Positions 440 through 51,229 of a stretch of 64,000 bases of DNA are shown here, piece after piece. The position numbers and the translations under genes were made by a program. Positions within the stretch are counted from its first letter, which is position 1. Every line of letters begins with the position of its first letter. The stretch is taken from positions 1-64,000 of IMG/VR virus record IMGVR_UViG_3300007722_000012; one strand, given 5' to 3'. This stretch comes from a virus. Under the pieces are notes generated by a model. It was not told where the DNA came from and ran no database searches. It saw nothing but the letters and a program-made list of their open reading frames with translations.

Positions 440-514
440 TGGTGCGCCCTAGTCGAATTGAACGACTATCGCCTAGTTCGAAGCCAGGAATATTATCCAT
501 TATACGAAAGGCGC
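440..514 (-). tRNA. tRNA-Arg(TCG)
   Basis: Cloverleaf read by eye on the minus strand: acceptor GCGCCTT/AGGGCGC, anticodon loop CTTCGAA (anticodon TCG), T loop TTCAATT, encoded CCA. It is the most distal tRNA of the cluster, next to the HNH gene. Confidence 0.85.
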
Positions 515-520
515 GTTGAT

Positions 521-595
521 TGGGCCCGCAAGGTGGAATCGGACCACCGTTTACCCATTAGAAGCGGGTAGTATTTTCCACTATACTATTGCGAG
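521..595 (-). tRNA. tRNA-Arg(TCT)
   Basis: Acceptor CTCGCAA/TTGCGGG, anticodon stem ACCCG/TGGGT around loop CTTCTAA (anticodon TCT, reads AGA), T stem GGTGG/CCACC, encoded CCA. Six bases separate it from the previous tRNA. Confidence 0.85.
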
Positions 596-615
596 AGTAA
601 AATATATTTCAATAT

Positions 616-687
616 TCCGTAGCCGGGATTCTAACCCAGATTAAAAGTTTAGGAAACTTCTGTGCTATACAGTTGCACTATAGCGAG
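616..687 (-). pseudogene. degenerate tRNA-Arg(CCT)-like
   Basis: D stem GTGC/GCAC, anticodon loop TTCCTAA (CCT) and T arm CTGGG-TTAGAAT-CCCGG are recognisable. The flanking sequences do not form an acceptor stem and no CCA is encoded. The T loop has A where C56 is nearly invariant. Probably a decayed tRNA, or one needing unusual repair. Confidence 0.5.
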
Positions 688-691
688 ATTT

Positions 692-780
692 TGGCGGAGG
701 ATGTGAGATTCGAACTCACCGGACTATTTCTAATCCACAGTTTAGCAAACTGCTCTCTTTGCCACATGAGTCATCCTCCG
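692..780 (-). tRNA. tRNA-Ser(GCT)
   Basis: Acceptor CGGAGGA/TCCTCCG, anticodon loop TTGCTAA (GCT), long variable arm as expected for Ser, T loop TTCGAAT, encoded CCA. Confidence 0.85.
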
Positions 781-786
781 AAAGTT

Positions 787-863
787 TGGTGGATGAAGCA
801 GGATTCGAACCTGCACTGAACGGCTTCTAAGGCCGTCGCCTCTACCGATTGGGCTAAGAGGGC
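787..863 (-). pseudogene. chimeric tRNA-like, anticodon TAG
   Basis: D arm, anticodon arm ACGGC-CTTAGAA-GCCGT and T arm GCAGG-TTCGAAT-CCTGC are good and CCA is encoded. However the 5' acceptor strand GCCCTCT cannot pair with the 3' strand TTCATCC. The 5' half resembles that of the TAG tRNA at 2910-2987, so this looks like a hybrid formed by recombination between tRNA genes. Confidence 0.55.
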
Positions 864-970
864 CAAAATATGGTGATAGTAGTTAACCTCTACACTATCA
901 ATGAGCCTGGATACCTTAGGACGTGTAACCCCACTTCAATATCTATATACACGAGCTACTAACTCGAATC

Positions 971-1057
971 TGGCGGAAGAGACAGGAATCGAACCTGCAT
1001 ACCCCTTTCGGAGCGAGAGGTTAGCAACCTCTTGGAATACCGTTATCCGACTCTTCC
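971..1057 (-). tRNA. tRNA-Ser(GCT), second copy
   Basis: Acceptor GGAAGAG/CTCTTCC, anticodon stem AGAGG/CCTCT around TTGCTAA (GCT), long variable arm, T loop TTCGATT, encoded CCA. Its sequence differs from the Ser(GCT) gene at 692-780, so it is not a recent duplicate. Confidence 0.85.
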
Positions 1058-1066
1058 TTTATTCTT

Positions 1067-1151
1067 TGGTGCGGGTAGTCGGATTCGAACCGACATGCAC
1101 AAGGCGGTAGATTTTAAGTCTACTGGGTCTGACCAATTTCCCCATACCCGC
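1067..1151 (-). tRNA. tRNA-Leu(TAA)
   Basis: Acceptor GCGGGTA/TACCCGC, anticodon stem GTAGA/TCTAC around CTTAAAA (TAA), long variable arm as expected for Leu, T loop TTCGAAT, encoded CCA. Confidence 0.88.
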
Positions 1152-1208
1152 ATTATTTCTCTAACTTCTATTATACAACATTTTCTTCATGCTGTCAATT
1201 ACTTTTAT

Positions 1209-1284
1209 TGGATGCAGCGACCGGACTCGAACCGATGACCTCCGAGGGTATGAACCTGGTGAGATGCCACTTCTCTACGCTGCT
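1209..1284 (-). tRNA. tRNA-Met(CAT)
   Basis: Acceptor AGCAGCG/CGCTGCA with an A-A mismatch at position 1-72, anticodon loop TTCATAC (CAT), T stem ATCGG/CCGGT, encoded CCA. The 1-72 mismatch is reminiscent of initiator tRNAs, but the anticodon stem lacks their three G-C pairs; an Ile2-type (modified CAT) tRNA is also possible. Confidence 0.75.
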
Positions 1285-1290
1285 ATAACT

Positions 1291-1374
1291 TGGTGCCGGA
1301 TGGGTGAATCAAACACCCTTTAGGTTTCCCTGACGGATTACAAATCCGTTGCAATCTCACTATGCGAATCCGGC
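1291..1374 (-). tRNA. tRNA with anticodon TGT (Thr) and long variable arm
   Basis: Acceptor GCCGGAT/ATCCGGC, anticodon stem ACGGA/TCCGT around TTTGTAA (TGT), T stem GGGTG/CACCC, encoded CCA. The variable region is 14 bases and can form AGG-GAAA-CCT, a class II feature not expected for a Thr tRNA. Confidence 0.75.
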
Positions 1375-1379
1375 AAAAT

Positions 1380-1428
1380 TGGTGGAGAACATTTTAGGTA
1401 TCCCCTGTGAAGTAGATCACTACTCTCC
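1380..1428 (-). pseudogene. truncated tRNA remnant
   Basis: A 49-base unit with perfectly pairable ends GGAGAGT/GTTCTCC plus A and CCA, but only two small hairpins inside and no T arm. Most simply a tRNA that lost its centre by deletion. Confidence 0.3.
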
Positions 1429-1522
1429 TATTACATTGCCTGATTAGACTATTGCTTGCCCAAAGGATTAGTTAACTACCTTTGTGGCTCATCCTGGATA
1501 ATGTAATCTATCCGCTGCTCTC

Positions 1523-1600
1523 TGGTGGATGATCTGAGAGTCGAACTCAGAATCTGAATATTTTGAGTATTCAAGGTATACCAATTCCCTTCAATCATCC
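1523..1600 (-). tRNA. tRNA-Leu(CAA)-like, short variable arm
   Basis: Acceptor GGATGAT/ATCATCC, anticodon stem GAATA/TATTC around CTCAAAA (CAA), T stem CTGAG/CTCAG, encoded CCA. The variable region is only about five bases, unlike normal bacterial Leu tRNAs. Confidence 0.7.
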
Positions 1601-1728
1601 GCGTATAAAAATTCCCAAAGTTTAAGTCTCCGTAAAAGTCGTAAGACGCATTAATTCATTATGCTTGCTACCAGCAATTCCTATATGGTCATTGCCCTGG
1701 ACGTGAACCAGGTTATTCTTACAAAATT

Positions 1729-1849
1729 TGGCGCCCCTAAGGGGAATTTAACTCCTCTGCCTCCGGCTTCAAATCCGGCTAACAATAAATGCAATACTAA
1801 CTAAACCCGCTAACGCAGATCAGATTTCTATGCACTTCCAATCAAGGGC
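1729..1849 (-). pseudogene. 121-base tRNA-like sequence
   Basis: The ends GCCCTTG and TAGGGGC pair over seven bases and are followed by G and CCA, with a T-arm-like AGGAG-TTAAATT-CCCCT. The interior is far too long and has only one clear hairpin (CCGG-ATTTGAAG-CCGG). Downstream, near 1690-1720, lies an isolated anticodon arm CCTGG-TTCACGT-CCAGG (CAC, Val). Read as decayed tRNA sequence. Confidence 0.3.
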
Positions 1850-1855
1850 AAAACT

Positions 1856-1934
1856 TGGCGGAGATGATGGGTAACGATCCCACCTGATAGCTTGCGTGAC
1901 AGGCAAGTGACCACACCATGCAGTCCCCATCTCC
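1856..1934 (-). tRNA. tRNA-Asp(GTC)
   Basis: Acceptor GGAGATG/CATCTCC, anticodon stem CTTGC/GCAAG around CTGTCAC (GTC), encoded CCA. The T loop is ATCGTTA rather than the standard TTCRANY, a variant also seen in the Glu tRNA of this cluster. Confidence 0.8.
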
Positions 1935-2229
1935 TTAAAAACTTTAGGTTACTACTATTTTTTACTACTCCGATCAAGGAGCGTTTGATCAATAGGTTCA
2001 CCAAGGTGTAGATAACATAGAGCTGATTAGTGCCTGCTTCTCTCGACCTAAAAATATACCATCTGCAGCATTGCTCCAAACAGTTGTGTGAGTGGTCCGT
2101 ATGCATGGGGGCTTTTACCCCGCATTTTCTTCTAGGCTTTCGACCCAGACACCGTTGATCACGGTAAGGAACACCTAGGGACCATGATGTTCGGCGCTTA
2201 CTATTTTGGGTGATCAGCCCAATCAATTT
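1935..2229. other. unassigned spacer inside the tRNA cluster
   Basis: About 295 bases between tRNA-Asp and tRNA-Tyr. One minus-strand frame is open across it, but that frame also runs through both tRNAs and the translation resembles nothing I recognise. A strong hairpin (ATGCGGGG paired with CCCCATGCAT) lies near 2100-2140. No tRNA could be folded here. Confidence 0.3.
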
Positions 2230-2315
2230 TGGTGGAGAGGATTGGATTTGAACCAATGTGCTTTTTACAGAACGGATTTACAGTCCGTCGCCTTCAACCG
2301 CTCGGCCACCTCTCC
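2230..2315 (-). tRNA. tRNA-Tyr(GTA)
   Basis: Acceptor GGAGAGG/CCTCTCC, anticodon stem ACGGA/TCCGT around CTGTAAA (GTA), long variable arm as expected for bacterial Tyr, T loop TTCAAAT, encoded CCA. Confidence 0.88.
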
Positions 2316-2391
2316 AATGTGCTATCAATTATCAAGATGTTTTGATTTTGGGCTAATCTCTTGAACCCTTTTAGCAGGGTAACGCTTAACT

Positions 2392-2490
2392 TGGCCCTCA
2401 GTATGGAATCGAACCATCGGCTTGATTTTACTCGGCAGCATTAGGTCCTTAACCATGAGCCGAATCAGTTCTACCACTGAACTACTGGGG
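2392..2490 (-). pseudogene. tRNA-like sequence with oversized anticodon region
   Basis: Acceptor CCCCAGT/ACTGAGG (one mismatch), D stem GTTC/GAAC, T loop TTCGATT and CCA are visible. The anticodon region is about 45 bases and forms one long imperfect hairpin from TGATT to AATCA. It may be a tRNA with an insertion or a fused remnant; no anticodon can be assigned. Confidence 0.35.
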
Positions 2491-2496
2491 ATAAAC

Positions 2497-2574
2497 TGGA
2501 ACACTCGATCCGATTCGCACGGATGGTTTTTCTGCTTTGCAGGCAGGTGCGTTGGGCTTCTCCGCCACGAGTGC
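2497..2574 (-). tRNA. tRNA-Cys(GCA)
   Basis: Acceptor GCACTCG/CGAGTGT, anticodon loop CTGCAAA (GCA) on a four-pair stem CTGC/GCAG, T stem ATCCG/CGGAT with loop TGCGAAT (G in place of T55), discriminator T and encoded CCA. Confidence 0.75.
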
Positions 2575-2581
2575 ATAAATT

Positions 2582-2675
2582 TGGTGGGTGCAGATGGATT
2601 CGAACTAAAACAGGAATCGAACCTGCACAACCTAACCCTATAAGTCAAGCCGTCTCCACTACGTCGGCTGCCGCC
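2582..2675 (-). pseudogene. hybrid tRNA remnant with two T arms
   Basis: A complete T arm (GCAGG-TTCGATT-CCTGT) is followed directly by the 3' end of another tRNA (GTTCGAATCCATC then TGCACCC-A-CCA). The 5' part has a D stem GCCG/CGGC but no acceptor partner for either 3' end. Consistent with a deletion fusing two tRNA genes. Confidence 0.45.
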
Positions 2676-2909
2676 TTTGTGTTTTTAAATATAACCACGC
2701 AATACTGGCCAAGGAAATTTCCATGTATCACATTGTTATATTGAAGAACACTATAGGAACCTAGCGGTTGTTCACAACCGATCCCCGCCTACTACCGAAT
2801 GTAGCTTCAGACGATAATGTACTTCAATATAACCCCTTGCACACAATGCTATCACAGCAGGTGGATCCGCAGCCCTCTGCTGCCCCCGAAATTTATTTAT
2901 GCCATTGGA
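2676..2909. other. spacer in tRNA cluster
   Basis: No cloverleaf found. It contains a stable hairpin CGGTTG-TGAA-CAACCG near 2765-2780. Probably decayed tRNA or spacer sequence. Confidence 0.25.
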
Positions 2910-2987
2910 TGGTGCCCTCGGCTGGATTCGAACCTGCACGACCTTCGTTCTAAGCGAAGTACCTCATACCAATTGGGTTACGAGGGC
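2910..2987 (-). tRNA. tRNA with anticodon TAG (Leu), short variable arm
   Basis: Acceptor GCCCTCG/CGAGGGC, anticodon stem CTTCG/CGAAG around CTTAGAA (TAG, reads CUA), T loop TTCGAAT, encoded CCA. The variable region is five bases, so this is a class I body with a Leu anticodon. Confidence 0.75.
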
Positions 2988-2991
2988 GAAA

Positions 2992-3066
2992 TGGTACTGC
3001 GTATGGGTAACGATCCCATCTATCCAGGTTGAAAGCCTGGTGACCTCACCTGAAGTCGAACGCAGT
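2992..3066 (-). tRNA. tRNA-Glu(TTC)
   Basis: Acceptor ACTGCGT/ACGCAGT, anticodon stem CCAGG/CCTGG around CTTTCAA (TTC), T stem ATGGG/CCCAT with the variant loop ATCGTTA, encoded CCA. Confidence 0.82.
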
Positions 3067-3076
3067 GAAAAAACTT

Positions 3077-3144
3077 TGGGGTAACGTACGAGAGTTGAAC
3101 TCGTACTAACAGAATCTGTGGTGCTGCCGCTACACTAACGTCAC
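3077..3144 (-). tRNA. short tRNA, anticodon uncertain
   Basis: Acceptor GTGACGT/ACGTTAC, D stem GTGT/GCAC, T stem ACGAG/CTCGT around TTCAACT, discriminator C and encoded CCA are good. At 68 bases it is short, and the anticodon arm does not form a normal five-pair stem; the candidate anticodon is CTG (Gln). C73 is typical of His, but no GTG anticodon is present. Confidence 0.45.
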
Positions 3145-3166
3145 ACTAAAGTTCTCTAAAAATTGT

Positions 3167-3258
3167 TGGCTCCCCAGAGAGGCTTTGAACCTCCATAACG
3201 GCTAGGCCGCATACACTTGATTAACAGTCAAGCCTCTTACCAGTTAGAGTACCGGGGA
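3167..3258 (-). tRNA. tRNA with anticodon GTT (Asn) and long variable arm
   Basis: Acceptor TCCCCGG/CTGGGGA, anticodon stem CTTGA/TCAAG around CTGTTAA (GTT), T stem GGAGG/CCTCT, encoded CCA. The variable region is about 21 bases with a hairpin CGGC-CTA-GCCG, a class II arm not expected for Asn. Confidence 0.75.
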
Positions 3259-3266
3259 ATAAAATA

Positions 3267-3344
3267 TGGTCTCCGATACTGGATTCAAACCAGTGTTATT
3301 CTTCGTCCCAAACGAAGTGCCACATCAGACTAGGCGAATCGGAG
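3267..3344 (-). tRNA. tRNA-Pro(TGG)
   Basis: Acceptor CTCCGAT/ATCGGAG, anticodon stem CTTCG/CGAAG around TTTGGGA (TGG), T stem ACTGG/CCAGT, encoded CCA. Confidence 0.88.
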
Positions 3345-10147: not shown

Positions 10148-10181
10148 ATTATATACCGATTTCCGAGAACTAGTAATAAAC
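10148..10181 (-). promoter_or_regulatory. GTTTAT-N22-TATAAT promoter (uvsX)
   Basis: Minus-strand GTTTAT at 10176-10181 overlapping the end of gp43, 22-base spacer, TATAAT at 10148-10153. Spacer matches those at 14879, 18110, 18997, 23528, 26953 and 62716. Confidence 0.75.
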
Positions 10182-11116
10182 TAGAAAAATTCAGAAAGAT
10201 CGTTCTTAAATTCTGTTTTCCACCCCATTGGCGAAATCATTAGCTCAACTGCTGCAAGGAACACCTTTTCGAATTGAAGATCGAAATCGATATACTTGTG
10301 CAATCCAAACTCAGTTGGTAATTTTCCGTCAACAGACCAACCAATGATATTCTCGTGCAGAATGTTGGGTTCTTTAAGATAGATGAAACGAATTTTGTTG
10401 CCCTCTTTCAGCATCTCGTATTTTTTGGTGAGTTTTAGTTTCTTAAGCAGGTGGTTATGAAGTAGGGCGGCACGAACGTGGATTGGTGTACGTAATCCGT
10501 ATATCGTGGATTCATTACTATATTCTTTAAGGTTAGATACGCCACGCGGAAATGCAATCTCTTCTACACTATGAATCATGAAATCTGCTTTGATGCCCGC
10601 AATATACTTTTGCATTTCTACTTCTGTGCTATCGAAGATAATATCTATACACTCTTTCAAAGCTTTCTGCACAACTTTTGGCGTCGACGACTTAACAATT
10701 TCCATCCCCATTATTTTCAATTTTGGTGTGGCGTATGATACTCCCTCCGACGAATAAACACGGAGAAAATATTTCTTCATGGCTAGCTGTACCATGTGCG
10801 ATGCAGCGACTTCAAGCTTCATGTTGAAGGTATTTTCAATAACGTTTAAACTAGTCGATACACTATTAGTGATATCTTTGATCACAGGCGACATTTTATC
10901 GATTGCAAGCTTTTCAATCATCCTGATGTTTTGTTCAACGGTTTGCGTGGGTGCATATCTTTTGATAACCGGGTCAAGGCAAAAATATCCGGAATTGTGA
11001 ACTGCTATATTATTAGCGAAGAAATTGTGATTGTTTTCTACTTCGATATCATAAACATCTACTTCCTGGATACCAAGATCTTCTATAACGAAATCTGATT
11101 CAAATGTTAAGTTCAT
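10181..11116 (-). CDS. 43: split-intein C half fused to gp43 C-terminal polymerase domain
   Basis: Residues 1-41 end with FFANNIAVHN, an intein C-terminal motif (block F/G, HN), followed by S42 as the +1 residue. Residues 42-311 (SGYFCLDPVIK...) continue family B polymerase just after motif C and run through the thumb. Trans-splicing with the product of 12192-14252 would restore ...YADTD-SGYF.... The start overlaps the end of the endonuclease gene by 17 bases. The frame ends in TAG. Confidence 0.9.
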   Translation of the reverse strand: MNLTFESDFVIEDLGIQEVDVYDIEVENNHNFFANNIAVHNSGYFCLDPVIKRYAPTQTVEQNIRMIEKLAIDKMSPVIKDITNSVSTSLNVIENTFNMKLEVAASHMVQLAMKKYFLRVYSSEGVSYATPKLKIMGMEIVKSSTPKVVQKALKECIDIIFDSTEVEMQKYIAGIKADFMIHSVEEIAFPRGVSNLKEYSNESTIYGLRTPIHVRAALLHNHLLKKLKLTKKYEMLKEGNKIRFIYLKEPNILHENIIGWSVDGKLPTEFGLHKYIDFDLQFEKVFLAAVELMISPMGWKTEFKNDLSEFF

Positions 11117-12173
11117 ATTTTATTTTCTGTATTATGTTTTTTGGGTCTTCTAAGAAATCTGATTCCCAAACGATTAAAGTCCTAATTCCGCGCTCTTCTT
11201 TTAACGCTGTAATTTTTCTTTTGTCAGCTTCCCACAATTCTAGTGCAGTTTGTGGTCCACCAGACCACGGCTTACGTTTAGTTGGAATATCATTCGGTGC
11301 ATAAATCTTTGGGTTGGCGTGGTAGTGGTCACCATTATATTCTATACATATATTATACTCAGTATTCACATAGTCAAAAAAATATGGTCTATGATTCAAT
11401 TTAGACCAAACAACATATTCTCCCGCCTTTGTTGCGTAATATGATTTATCCTTTAGCTGCGGCAATTCTATCTCCAATAACATTATCATATTCTGGCTTG
11501 CTTTAGAATAGAATGTATTTGTTCTTGAGATAGTATCTAGGAATTTGAGTGGGCCGATCTCGGGCCCATACTTTCTAACAAAATTATCCATAGTATGGCC
11601 CTTCTCAGAGCACACTCTCTTATACTCAGATAGACCACGCGTCTCTCCAAACTTTTCAACAAAATAAGCTAAAGAGACCCCAACTGACTGCTGTTTTACG
11701 CAATACGCATCAAATTTAGTAGAACCATCAATGCGCCCATGCTTAGAAATTTGGTTTTCTAGTGTAACTGCGCGAGATCGATTATAAGAACCAAAATCAT
11801 CTAGAGTCATGTTGTATTTCTCTTGCTTATATTCGAAGGTGTTAGTCAGTGACTGTTTTTTTCGATATATATCCCAACGTTTAATACCATCAATTGAACC
11901 ATAGAAATGCTTCATTTTCGCTAGAGTCACGGCATTCCCAAATGATAAATGTGTGGTATACCATGCCACTAAATCAACAGGTAAATGGTTGGATGAAATA
12001 AGAAATTCCAAATTCTTAATGATATTCTGTGATTTGAATCGACCTTCGTTTGATGCAGAAAATAGACAAACTAGATTATCAAATCTATCTGGTAGACATA
12101 TTAAGTTTAGACGTGATATTTGTTTTTTCAAAAAAGAACTTGGGTCATTTAACAGCAATTTAGTTGATTTCAT
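11100..12173 (-). CDS. Vsr-like (EDxHD) homing endonuclease between split-intein halves
   Basis: 357 residues. The C-terminal region has IEYNGDHYH (E278, D282, H283, H285), the EDxHD-type active site of Vsr-related homing endonucleases that occur inside fractured intein genes, preceded by repeated KHGxxxG-type units (about residues 85-215) that may bind DNA. It lies exactly between the two gp43 intein halves. No Shine-Dalgarno is evident, but a late promoter (12203-12210) sits 30 bases upstream inside the 3' end of the N-terminal gp43 gene. Confidence 0.85.
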   Translation of the reverse strand: MKSTKLLLNDPSSFLKKQISRLNLICLPDRFDNLVCLFSASNEGRFKSQNIIKNLEFLISSNHLPVDLVAWYTTHLSFGNAVTLAKMKHFYGSIDGIKRWDIYRKKQSLTNTFEYKQEKYNMTLDDFGSYNRSRAVTLENQISKHGRIDGSTKFDAYCVKQQSVGVSLAYFVEKFGETRGLSEYKRVCSEKGHTMDNFVRKYGPEIGPLKFLDTISRTNTFYSKASQNMIMLLEIELPQLKDKSYYATKAGEYVVWSKLNHRPYFFDYVNTEYNICIEYNGDHYHANPKIYAPNDIPTKRKPWSGGPQTALELWEADKRKITALKEERGIRTLIVWESDFLEDPKNIIQKIKYELNI

Positions 12174-12191
12174 TATGGGGACACCGATTGA

Positions 12192-14252
12192 TTAGTATAT
12201 TATATTTATACATTTATCAAATCGGGTAATCTCAGCTGGTTTGATTGACAGAATCCTATTATTACGCAAAATCATAACACTATGATCTTCTGTGACTGTG
12301 ACAGAAACCCCACCAACGGTAATTTTAAACATCCGTTTCTTTACTCGATGCTTCATGACGTGGAGTACATTATTATGTTCTATAGCCTTAGTGCTTAGAT
12401 TGATAGACGGTGTAATATCAGTTGTTACCGGCTTTACATAACTCTGATTAAAACTATCTTCATACACATAAAAATTCCTATTCTTTGCGTAATATTCAGC
12501 TATAGTGATATCTTTACCATTGATTTTTACCATAGTATCACCAGTCACGGAATCTGTGTCGGCATAAAAGAGGGTGCCCGTGCAATCCATCTTCATAACT
12601 TCTGTGAAGCGATTATCAAACTTTGCTTCTAATGAACGAAGCAAGAGTTGGCCCGTGAGCGTGATACTCTCGGCGACGTGACTGTTGAAATATCTAAACC
12701 CAGCATTTGCCAAGGCGCCGTACAATGAGTTCAATGAAATTTTATAGGCTTGTTCTGTATTCGATAATGCTGCACGAGTTTGGTTCAGTTTGTGGAGTTC
12801 GTCTTTATCACCAGATGTTCGCTTGAGATCTTCCATTTTTCTCTGGATATCCAGCATGGCGTTTTTAGCGTCACGGCGTTTCTTCATGTATGTTTTTATA
12901 ACGATGGGAATAATGCCCGGGATATCTTTTCTGTATAACGAACCGTTGGCGCCCATACAGACATTTTTATCTTTGTTTTCGATATTGCCACTCAAACATT
13001 TTTCTACAGTACTATCACACTGGCCGATGTAGGTTTCTGGCGATAGGTTTAGCGCCATCATGACGCTGGGATACAAGCTGGTGAAATCGAAGCTCACTAC
13101 ATTCTTGTACATGCCTGGTATGGGTGTTTTTACATAGGCGCCCTGGATACCGAAGGCTTCACCAGTATGCTTACGCTGGGGTGACACAATATTCCGCGCC
13201 AGCAATTCGTTATGGAGAATAGCGTCCCAAGTTTTAACCGGAGAAAAGACGTCGGTGTAGTTAATCTTGGCCTCATAAGCAATCGTTAACGCGAGTTCGA
13301 TCAAACGTAACTTATCATTAAGTTGGCCAACTAATTCTGCGTCTCGAACGTTATATTCTACATAGGTATGAAACTCATCGCTGAAGAAGGCGTCAAACGA
13401 TTCGGTTGGGTTTTCGAGTTTGCTCACACCGAGTTCTTCTTGTGCGATAGATCCAAGCGCCCACGATTCGCGAGCCTTAGTGGTGAACTTCTTCATTAGT
13501 GCCATCATATCAAGAACAGATATACCCGTGATACTATACTCAAGTTCGTCGCGGCCTTTGTAGTTGCGAAGTTGAAAGTCAACCAATCCCCATGGAGAAA
13601 GCTTCTTGGCAAACTCATGACCTAAGACGATTGTGATGCGATTAAGAAGATAAGGCACATCGAAGCCGTCTACGCTCCAACCAGTGACGATATCTGGATA
13701 AGCTTGGGACCAAAAAGCCAAGAATAACTTCAGCAGTGCTTTTTCGTCTCTGCATTCCGTATAGGCCGTCACTACATTGTGTTTGCCTGTGGGTACATAG
13801 CCTTTGATGCCCCAAGTATAACACCGCTTGGTGTGGATATCTTGGACTGTGATCAGCTGGATAGTTCCCAATGCGTATTTTGGGTCAGGGAAACTTCCAT
13901 CTGGAGCTGAGCCGACCTCGATATCTACCGAATAAACTTTGATGCGAGAGAAGTCCCACCCGTGAAAGTCATATTGATTTGCATATTGAAGAACTTCATT
14001 CTGTTGCCCAAACACTTCTATGCCCGATACCCCGGCATAAGTCTTACACCAATCCCGGGCATCATGCATATTGCCCGGTTGTACTTCCTTAACTTTATCA
14101 CCATACAGTGAGGCCAGACCAGAAGTAGAGTTTTCGTCTCTAAGATAATAAGTAGGTTGCCATGCATCTTTGCGAAGTGATGAGATCCCATCAACTACTT
14201 CACGAACTAGGATAGAGTTGCCGGCGCGGGCTATATTTGTGTAGAATTTCAT
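12192..14252 (-). CDS. 43: gp43 DNA polymerase N-terminal part fused to split-intein N half
   Basis: Residues 1-567 are family B polymerase: exonuclease motif SVDIEVG, Exo II region GWSVDGFDVPYLL, motif A DFTSLYPS, motif B NSLYGALANAGF and motif C ending YADTD. At S568 (SVTGDTMV) an intein N-terminal half of 119 residues begins, with block B TVTEDH. The gene stops after KCINIIY. The polymerase is thus made as two proteins joined by protein trans-splicing; the extein total of 837 residues fits the T4 enzyme (898). Confidence 0.92.
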   Translation of the reverse strand: MKFYTNIARAGNSILVREVVDGISSLRKDAWQPTYYLRDENSTSGLASLYGDKVKEVQPGNMHDARDWCKTYAGVSGIEVFGQQNEVLQYANQYDFHGWDFSRIKVYSVDIEVGSAPDGSFPDPKYALGTIQLITVQDIHTKRCYTWGIKGYVPTGKHNVVTAYTECRDEKALLKLFLAFWSQAYPDIVTGWSVDGFDVPYLLNRITIVLGHEFAKKLSPWGLVDFQLRNYKGRDELEYSITGISVLDMMALMKKFTTKARESWALGSIAQEELGVSKLENPTESFDAFFSDEFHTYVEYNVRDAELVGQLNDKLRLIELALTIAYEAKINYTDVFSPVKTWDAILHNELLARNIVSPQRKHTGEAFGIQGAYVKTPIPGMYKNVVSFDFTSLYPSVMMALNLSPETYIGQCDSTVEKCLSGNIENKDKNVCMGANGSLYRKDIPGIIPIVIKTYMKKRRDAKNAMLDIQRKMEDLKRTSGDKDELHKLNQTRAALSNTEQAYKISLNSLYGALANAGFRYFNSHVAESITLTGQLLLRSLEAKFDNRFTEVMKMDCTGTLFYADTDSVTGDTMVKINGKDITIAEYYAKNRNFYVYEDSFNQSYVKPVTTDITPSINLSTKAIEHNNVLHVMKHRVKKRMFKITVGGVSVTVTEDHSVMILRNNRILSIKPAEITRFDKCINIIY
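12203..12210 (-). promoter_or_regulatory. late promoter inside gp43-N for the endonuclease
   Basis: TATAAATA occurs within the last codons of the gp43-N/intein-N gene, giving a predicted start about 23 bases before the endonuclease ATG. Confidence 0.6.
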
Positions 14253-50231: not shown

Positions 50232-51170
50232 TTAAACTTCCTTTATCAGTGAAACACAGAATTTTCGTTGAACTTGTTCCGAACAAGTTTTTAGGTAATT
50301 TACAAAATAGTCAAGTGTTGATCTATTATCTGTGATATATTTATACATTGGCTTCTTTATTTTACAATTATCTGGATTCAAAAGATATTCAATAATTAGT
50401 TTTCTATTTGAGCCACCAAGCTGTGTATTCCTTACAGCAAGGGTCAATGTTCTTGCTTGATCTAGTGTTTCACATATTCCAGATATACCAGATAAATTGT
50501 TGTCTAAAACATATTGTCTAAATTCGCCCGTACTTCTAAATTCTAATGGATACAGGGATACACCTCTTAATGGGTGTAATATTAACAAACTATTAACTAA
50601 TTTAGACGTTGGGTCTTTCCATCTAGAGGATTGTTTTACACTCTTATTTGCTGCTATTTCTGGTCTATTTTGTACTATTTTCTGAATATCAGATCTTAAT
50701 TTCTTAGATTCTGGCGTATTACTAACTTCTTTCATTTTTATGCAATGTTGCTCTTTCCATTCTTTACTACGCCTTACACCAAACATCTGATTTTTCTCGC
50801 CGGGCATTGGAATACCAAAGCACCCTGCACTATTTGCATATGAATAATTAAAGAATTCATTAGAACTAACCACATTTAATTCAACTTGAATATCATTTTC
50901 AATTTCCAACAAAGCGCCTTTTTCGATATCTATACAATTAAATAACACCCTTTTACTAAACCTGTCCGGGTGTTGTTTTACTTCATTCTTCCAAAAATCT
51001 TTCCATCTTTTACTGCTAACTGTACCATAATATTTAGTTAGATCTTTAATAGTACTACCGATATACTTCCACGGCAGGCCTTTATCATTACCGACCCAAG
51101 GCAAATATATTATCTCATAAACTATTAAGTTTTTCGGATGACTTTTATCATAAATAATTTCGTTGCTCAT
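50232..51170 (-). CDS. GIY-YIG homing endonuclease
   Basis: 312 residues. YEIIYLPWVGNDKG then WKYIGSTI is a GIY-YIG pair; later FWKNEVKQHP and an acidic LLEIEND. Its stop touches the gp21 start, so it sits in the head operon between gp21 and the gene at 51244, with its own late promoter and leader hairpin. Confidence 0.83.
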   Translation of the reverse strand: MSNEIIYDKSHPKNLIVYEIIYLPWVGNDKGLPWKYIGSTIKDLTKYYGTVSSKRWKDFWKNEVKQHPDRFSKRVLFNCIDIEKGALLEIENDIQVELNVVSSNEFFNYSYANSAGCFGIPMPGEKNQMFGVRRSKEWKEQHCIKMKEVSNTPESKKLRSDIQKIVQNRPEIAANKSVKQSSRWKDPTSKLVNSLLILHPLRGVSLYPLEFRSTGEFRQYVLDNNLSGISGICETLDQARTLTLAVRNTQLGGSNRKLIIEYLLNPDNCKIKKPMYKYITDNRSTLDYFVNYLKTCSEQVQRKFCVSLIKEV

Positions 51171-51229
51171 ATAATCTCCTAAGGTTGAGTAAAGTCACTT
51201 GGAACTAGTAATTCCGTGGGTGACACTTC

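What the first reader, a model, noticed from the sequence alone, without database searches (positions are those of the whole stretch)
10181..14252. DNA polymerase gene fractured by a split intein with a Vsr-like homing endonuclease between the halves
gp43-N ends in an intein N-half (S568 SVTGDTMV, TEDH), gp43-C starts with an intein C-half (FFANNIAVHN|S), and the gene between encodes an EDxHD/Vsr-like nuclease. The insertion point is inside polymerase motif C (YADTD|S). Fractured genes of this kind have been described mainly from metagenomic sequence; here the polymerase of a T4-type phage depends on trans-splicing. Seen: both halves, motifs, order. Known: split-intein biology and the Vsr-like homing family. 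Inferred: active trans-splicing.
Basis: partly seen in the sequence, partly recalled or inferred. Interest (0 to 1): 0.88.

Follow-up and report, generated by a model that had tools for sequence, protein, structure and literature searches.

The report
Phage polymerase split by trans-splicing intein
The DNA-copying enzyme of this T4-like phage is encoded in two pieces that carry the halves of a self-splicing protein joint, with a selfish DNA-cutting gene between them; the arrangement is real but already known from cultured phages, where related joints have been shown to splice, and databases show it is widespread.

Summary
On the minus strand, gp43-N (14252..12192) ends in a 119-aa intein N-half (S568-Y686). 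An 18-bp gap follows, then a 357-aa Vsr-like nuclease (12173..11100), then a 41-aa intein C-half plus gp43-C (11116..10181). The junction is YADTD|S...HN|S, inside polymerase motif C, and the known splicing residues are present. The IntN model matches the crystallised Aes123 PolB1 split intein (9HTH) at 1.3 A. Siblings with about 70% identical polymerase have the gene uninterrupted.

It is not new in kind. Aeromonas phages (Aes123, Aes508, AS-gz), Campylobacter CP21/F379, Tenacibaculum PTm1, Vibrio VPALA and others carry the same order at the same motif. Four homologous PolB split inteins trans-splice in vitro. My survey gave 102 distinct loci; of 55 found by IntN alone, 29 have a full Vsr-like nuclease, 6 a partial one, 9 none, 4 another insert, and 7 are contiguous.

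Best reading: a split-intein/homing-endonuclease element whose trans-splicing restores gp43. Splicing and homing by this copy are inferred. Possibly unpublished: nuclease and split state change often among relatives, and the element has shifted by two codons more than once.

The parts
12552..14252 (-). gp43 N-extein, residues 1-567: exonuclease and palm up to motif C (YADTD)
   Evidence: PF00136 3.2e-29, PF03104 6e-18; phrog_262 9.8e-171
12195..12551 (-). intein N-half, 119 aa, S568-Y686: Ser1, NX Lys-His68, N3 T87-x-D89-H90
   Evidence: AlphaFold pLDDT 90.5, Foldseek 9hth E 1.5e-10, TM 0.88, rmsd 1.3
11100..12173 (-). Vsr-like homing endonuclease, 357 aa, free-standing ORF between the intein halves
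   Evidence: family alignment A4 of 54; phrog_22677 4.6e-57; model pLDDT 91.8, top fold hit Vsr 1cw0 prob 0.99 but E 0.039
11526..11924 (-). helical repeats (residues 84-216) with recurring YG...G...Y motifs, probable DNA-binding arm of the nuclease
   Evidence: secondary structure of model; invariant columns; DNA binding is inference
11148..11417 (-). Vsr-like catalytic core of the nuclease, residues 253-342, with D267, E278, H285, D317
   Evidence: alignment to E. coli Vsr 1odg/1vsr, E 0.025; conserved or nearly so in 54 sequences
10994..11116 (-). intein C-half, 41 aa, ending VHN; its start overlaps the end of the nuclease ORF by 17 bp
   Evidence: TIGR01443 2.3e-7; 9hth 9.3e-10
10181..10993 (-). 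gp43 C-extein (Ser+1 GYF..., thumb), 270 aa plus stop
   Evidence: PF20286 2.1e-6; RB69-type gp43 structures about 2e-22

Best explanation
This is a gp43 (PolB) gene fractured by a mobile split-intein element of the Aes123 PolB1 type. The two polypeptides are made separately. IntN and the acidic IntC associate, Ser1 and Ser+1 carry out oxyester protein splicing, and Asn41 of IntC cyclises. This joins YADTD to SGYF and restores motif C and a full-length polymerase. The Vsr-like protein encoded between the halves is a homing endonuclease that cuts intein-less gp43 at or near motif C, so that recombination copies the whole cassette into co-infecting relatives. Shown here: anatomy, residues, fold, empty sites, relatives. 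Inferred: splicing by this pair, cleavage by this nuclease.
For: Exact junctions and an intact residue set. IntN model superposes on 9HTH at 1.3 A. Homologous Aes123, CP21, LCGC14 and GOM-OPS-1 PolB split inteins trans-splice in vitro (PMC11923092; PMC12707363; PMC13014065). Ser1 in 100/102, terminal HN in 101/102 and N3 DH in 102/102 distinct loci. Empty-site siblings L007-L009. Insert GC 34.7% vs window mean 41.9% (rank 2 of 625 stretches). 77 of 80 loci found through the nuclease have at least one half of this intein beside it. In sibling L007, two other genes (uvsX, gp41) carry precise split-intein inserts absent from L008, which is 91-95% identical there.
Against: No protein or transcript data. 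The wild-type Aes123 pair splices only about 30% in vitro, so efficiency here is unknown. The nuclease's match to Vsr is weak (profile E 0.025, fold E 0.039). Charge separation between the halves does not differ between split and contiguous relatives (p=0.37), so it gives no support for adaptation to the split state.
Confidence: 0.9

Rival explanations
1. The halves are not spliced; gp43-N and gp43-C assemble non-covalently into an active polymerase and the intein is a relic.
For: In Aeromonas phage 25, split 43A and 43B co-purify and have polymerase activity, and split NrdA of Aeh1 works in pieces (PMC2988022).
Against: Every splicing residue is kept here and in nearly all of 102 loci, unexpected for relics. 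The break lies inside motif C, with 119 and 41 extra residues at the active site. Homologous pairs splice in vitro.
Confidence: 0.06
2. The intervening ORF is not a working homing endonuclease (degenerate, or with another function), and the cassette is now inherited vertically.
For: Partial or absent nucleases are frequent in relatives (6 partial and 9 none of 55). Nuclease identity tracks extein identity more than intein identity (partial r 0.48 vs 0.23).
Against: The ORF is full length with the conserved positions kept, and siblings at about 70% identity lack the cassette.
Confidence: 0.25
3. The broken gene is an assembly or sequencing artefact.
For: The data are metagenomic.
Against: A second contig (L006) is identical through the locus, though it could stem from the same sample; the same order occurs in many independent genomes, including isolates.
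Confidence: 0.01

Closest known systems
Aes123 PolB1 split intein and gp43 locus of Aeromonas salmonicida phages (Aes123, Aes144, Aes509, Aes508, AS-gz)
   Same: Same gene, same site (Y.DTD|S...HN|S), order IntN - Vsr-like ORF - IntC, Ser1/Ser+1; IntN 39% and IntC 71% identical
   Different: Aeromonas gp43 has a further break upstream (43A/43B); here the rest of the gene is intact. Nuclease about 32% identical. One Cys in IntN here.
Fractured PolB of Campylobacter phages CP21/F379, Tenacibaculum PTm1, Vibrio VPALA, Lak phage, SRB7757
   Same: Split intein at motif C with a Vsr-like ORF between; the CP21 intein splices in vitro (PMC12707363)
   Different: Distant hosts and polymerases; SRB7757 has an oddly redundant C-half
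'Fractured genes' with a Vsr-like (EDxHD) endonuclease, Dassa et al. 2009
   Same: Enzyme gene broken by a split intein with a free-standing endonuclease gene between (definition from my own knowledge; paper not held)
   Different: Described from metagenomes; whether polB was among its genes was not checked
E. coli Vsr and EDxHD homing endonuclease I-Bth0305I
   Same: Catalytic core aligns with Vsr
   Different: Has an N-terminal helical repeat arm; similarity below usual significance; I-Bth0305I itself was not among the fold hits

Membership tests
Ser1/Ser+1 PolB split intein (Aes123 PolB1 type) | Inserted in PolB motif C between D and S, Ser at +1 | tested here: met
   YADTD|S...HN|S; siblings read YADTDSA
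Ser1/Ser+1 PolB split intein (Aes123 PolB1 type) | Ser1, NX (K/R)-His, N3 TxxH, C-terminal His-Asn | tested here: met
   S1, K67-H68, T87-D89-H90, H40-N41; motif NX from PMC10189870
Ser1/Ser+1 PolB split intein (Aes123 PolB1 type) | Intein fold | tested here: met
   IntN model vs 9HTH TM 0.88, rmsd 1.3 A; IntC by sequence only
Ser1/Ser+1 PolB split intein (Aes123 PolB1 type) | Protein trans-splicing activity | not testable with these tools
   Shown in vitro for four homologues, not for this pair
Fractured gene (Dassa type) | Conserved enzyme gene in two ORFs ending/starting with intein halves, endonuclease ORF between | tested here: met
Vsr-like / EDxHD homing endonuclease | Vsr-type core with catalytic D, H, D | tested here: met
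   D267, H285, D317 align to Vsr D, H, D; match weak, E 0.025
Vsr-like / EDxHD homing endonuclease | Leading conserved Glu of the EDxHD signature | tested here: inconclusive
   No upstream invariant E; an invariant E278 lies between D267 and H285
Vsr-like / EDxHD homing endonuclease | Cuts the intein-less allele | not testable with these tools
   needs biochemistry
T4-type gp43 (PolB) | Exo and pol domains, match to phage gp43 along both exteins, T4-like replication cluster | tested here: met
   phrog_262 on both parts; uvsX, gp41 and gp44 homologues nearby, by similarity and order

The most novel reading that the evidence does not exclude
The motif-C split intein with its Vsr-like nuclease is one of the common selfish elements of T4-like and giant phages. 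It changes repeatedly between contiguous intein, split intein with nuclease, and split intein after nuclease loss, and it has shifted by two codons (YxD|TDS to or from YxDTD|S) more than once. The fractured state would then be a recurrent, partly reversible stage of the homing cycle, not a rare dead end.
Probability: 0.5. Interest if true: 0.55.

Novelty: new member of a known kind. Interest (0 to 1): 0.38.

Why it matters
It adds a new phage lineage whose replicative polymerase must be put together from two precursors, and points to a large source of cysteine-independent split inteins for protein engineering. The wider set of alleles (with nuclease, without, contiguous, empty) makes a question testable that fractured genes raised: does nuclease invasion split inteins, and can they re-fuse?

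Tried and rejected
Reading it as a rarity: rejected by isolates and the survey. Charge separation as evidence for adaptation to splitting: no difference from contiguous relatives (p=0.37, only 7 contiguous). Nuclease and intein moving strictly as one unit: only partly supported, as the nuclease tracks the extein more (partial r 0.48 vs 0.23). A nuclease profile from nine divergent sequences gave no searchable stretch; five closer ones worked. Pfam has no accepted family for the nuclease. The Dassa 2009 paper is not held. No paper in the library reports a survey like the one here, but subscription journals are largely missing. The two halves were not folded together, because joined halves are not a sequence read from the window.

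Full report
OBSERVATION. gp43-N (14252..12192, 686 aa) has the PolB exonuclease and polymerase domains and then an intein N-half from S568. gp43-C (11116..10181, 311 aa) starts with a 41-aa intein C-half. Between them lies a 357-aa ORF (12173..11100), 18 bp after the first stop and overlapping the third ORF by 17 bp. The insertion splits motif C between YADTD and S. Siblings L007, L008 and L009, whose polymerase is about 70% identical, have one uninterrupted ORF reading ...FYADTDSA.... The exteins therefore join without a missing or extra residue.

THE INTEIN. IntN and IntC match the solved Aes123 PolB1 split intein (9HTH) by sequence (4e-24; 9e-10). A model of IntN from 40 aligned window and IMG/VR sequences (pLDDT 90.5) superposes on 9HTH at 1.3 A over 112 columns, TM 0.88. 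Ser1, the NX Lys-His pair typical of Ser1 inteins (motif from PMC10189870), the N3 T-x-D-H and the terminal His-Asn followed by Ser are all present. One non-catalytic Cys (C114) makes the intein cysteine-independent, not cysteine-less.

THE NUCLEASE. A 54-member alignment keeps D267 and E278 invariant and H285 and D317 nearly so. The profile aligns this region with E. coli Vsr, pairing D267, H285 and D317 with D, H and D of Vsr, at a weak E of 0.025. The model (pLDDT 91.8) has an N-terminal arm of helical repeats and a Vsr-like core; its best fold match is Vsr 1cw0 (probability 0.99, E 0.039). A Vsr-like homing endonuclease is the best reading; DNA cleavage is inferred. The conserved leading Glu of the EDxHD name was not found.

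KNOWN RELATIVES. The same order at the same site is annotated in Aeromonas salmonicida phages, down to 'putative VSR endonuclease', 'N-intein' and 'C-intein'. It is also present in Campylobacter CP21 and F379, Tenacibaculum PTm1, Vibrio VPALA, a Prevotella Lak phage and a Nitratidesulfovibrio phage. Klebsiella KP13-7 has it two codons upstream. Trans-splicing has been measured for the Aes123, CP21, LCGC14 and GOM-OPS-1 PolB split inteins (PMC11923092, PMC12707363, PMC13014065). The finding is therefore a new member of a known kind.

SURVEY. Two scans of IMG/VR, one seeded with the nuclease and one with IntN, plus the isolates, gave 102 distinct loci with a complete pair. Ser1 occurs in 100, HN in 101, N3 DH in 102. 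Residue +1 is Ser in 84, Thr in 17 (YxD|TDS) and Cys in one (L119). Among 55 distinct loci found by IntN alone, 29 have a full Vsr-like nuclease, 6 a partial one, 9 none but still split, 4 another insert (a GIY-YIG gene in L198), and 7 are contiguous. On an intein tree the +1 residue, which marks the insertion position, changes 4 times (shuffled mean 17), whereas nuclease/contiguity state changes 18 times, about as often as shuffled labels (19). Nuclease gain and loss and split/contiguous changes thus look frequent; position shifts are few but more than one. These counts are not frequencies in nature: each scan lists only its best 80 matches, the seeds favour close relatives, and the tree is a quick one whose support was not examined.

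MOBILITY. The insert is 34.7% GC against a window mean of 41.9%. In the sibling pair L007/L008, 91-95% identical in uvsX and most of gp41, L007 alone carries a split intein in uvsX (about 440 bp) and a split intein with a Vsr-like gene in gp41 (about 1780 bp), both at precise junctions, while its gp43 is empty. The window shows the reverse: gp43 occupied, uvsX and gp41 intact. This mosaic is what homing predicts, though precise loss would look alike.

RIVALS. Non-covalent assembly of split polymerases does occur in Aeromonas phage 25 (PMC2988022), so splicing is not proven by need alone; but the break here lies in motif C and the splicing residues are kept throughout the family. A dead or diverted nuclease remains possible for this copy.

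VERDICT. Observation confirmed and interpretation supported. Novelty is low for the locus itself, moderate for the pattern across relatives. Not shown: splicing of this pair, cleavage by this nuclease, and any cost or benefit to the phage.

Noticed in passing
L007 3713-5234 and 5734-8899: A sibling phage with empty gp43 has fractured uvsX (split intein, no nuclease) and fractured gp41 helicase (split intein with a Vsr-like ORF), both absent from near-identical L008.
   Followed up: partly
L010 2654-3243; L090 2333-4093; L119 1618-3150: Related inteins sit at YxD|TDS (L010, L090) or Y|CDTDS (L119) instead of YxDTD|S, a few codons upstream.
   Followed up: partly
L198 5364-6062; L055 302-961: A GIY-YIG endonuclease with a NUMOD3 motif replaces the Vsr-like gene between the same intein halves.
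   Followed up: partly
L087 3746-4183: Nitratidesulfovibrio phage SRB7757: the C-half ORF carries intein N-region motifs (NX and N3) in addition to an N-half ORF that also has N3.
   Followed up: no
L051 2440-5724: The polymerase ORF carries a second, contiguous intein-like insert upstream of the motif-C split intein.
   Followed up: no
window 50238-51194 (-): Low-GC ORF (about 33%) of 319 aa beside a gp21-like protease gene, resembling a free-standing GIY-YIG endonuclease by eye; no Pfam hit.
   Followed up: partly
window 440-3344 (-): Cluster of 15 tRNA genes.
   Followed up: no
L008 6822-7667: A probable DNA adenine methyltransferase gene (by eye) lies between gp43 and uvsX in the sibling, absent from the window.
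   Followed up: no
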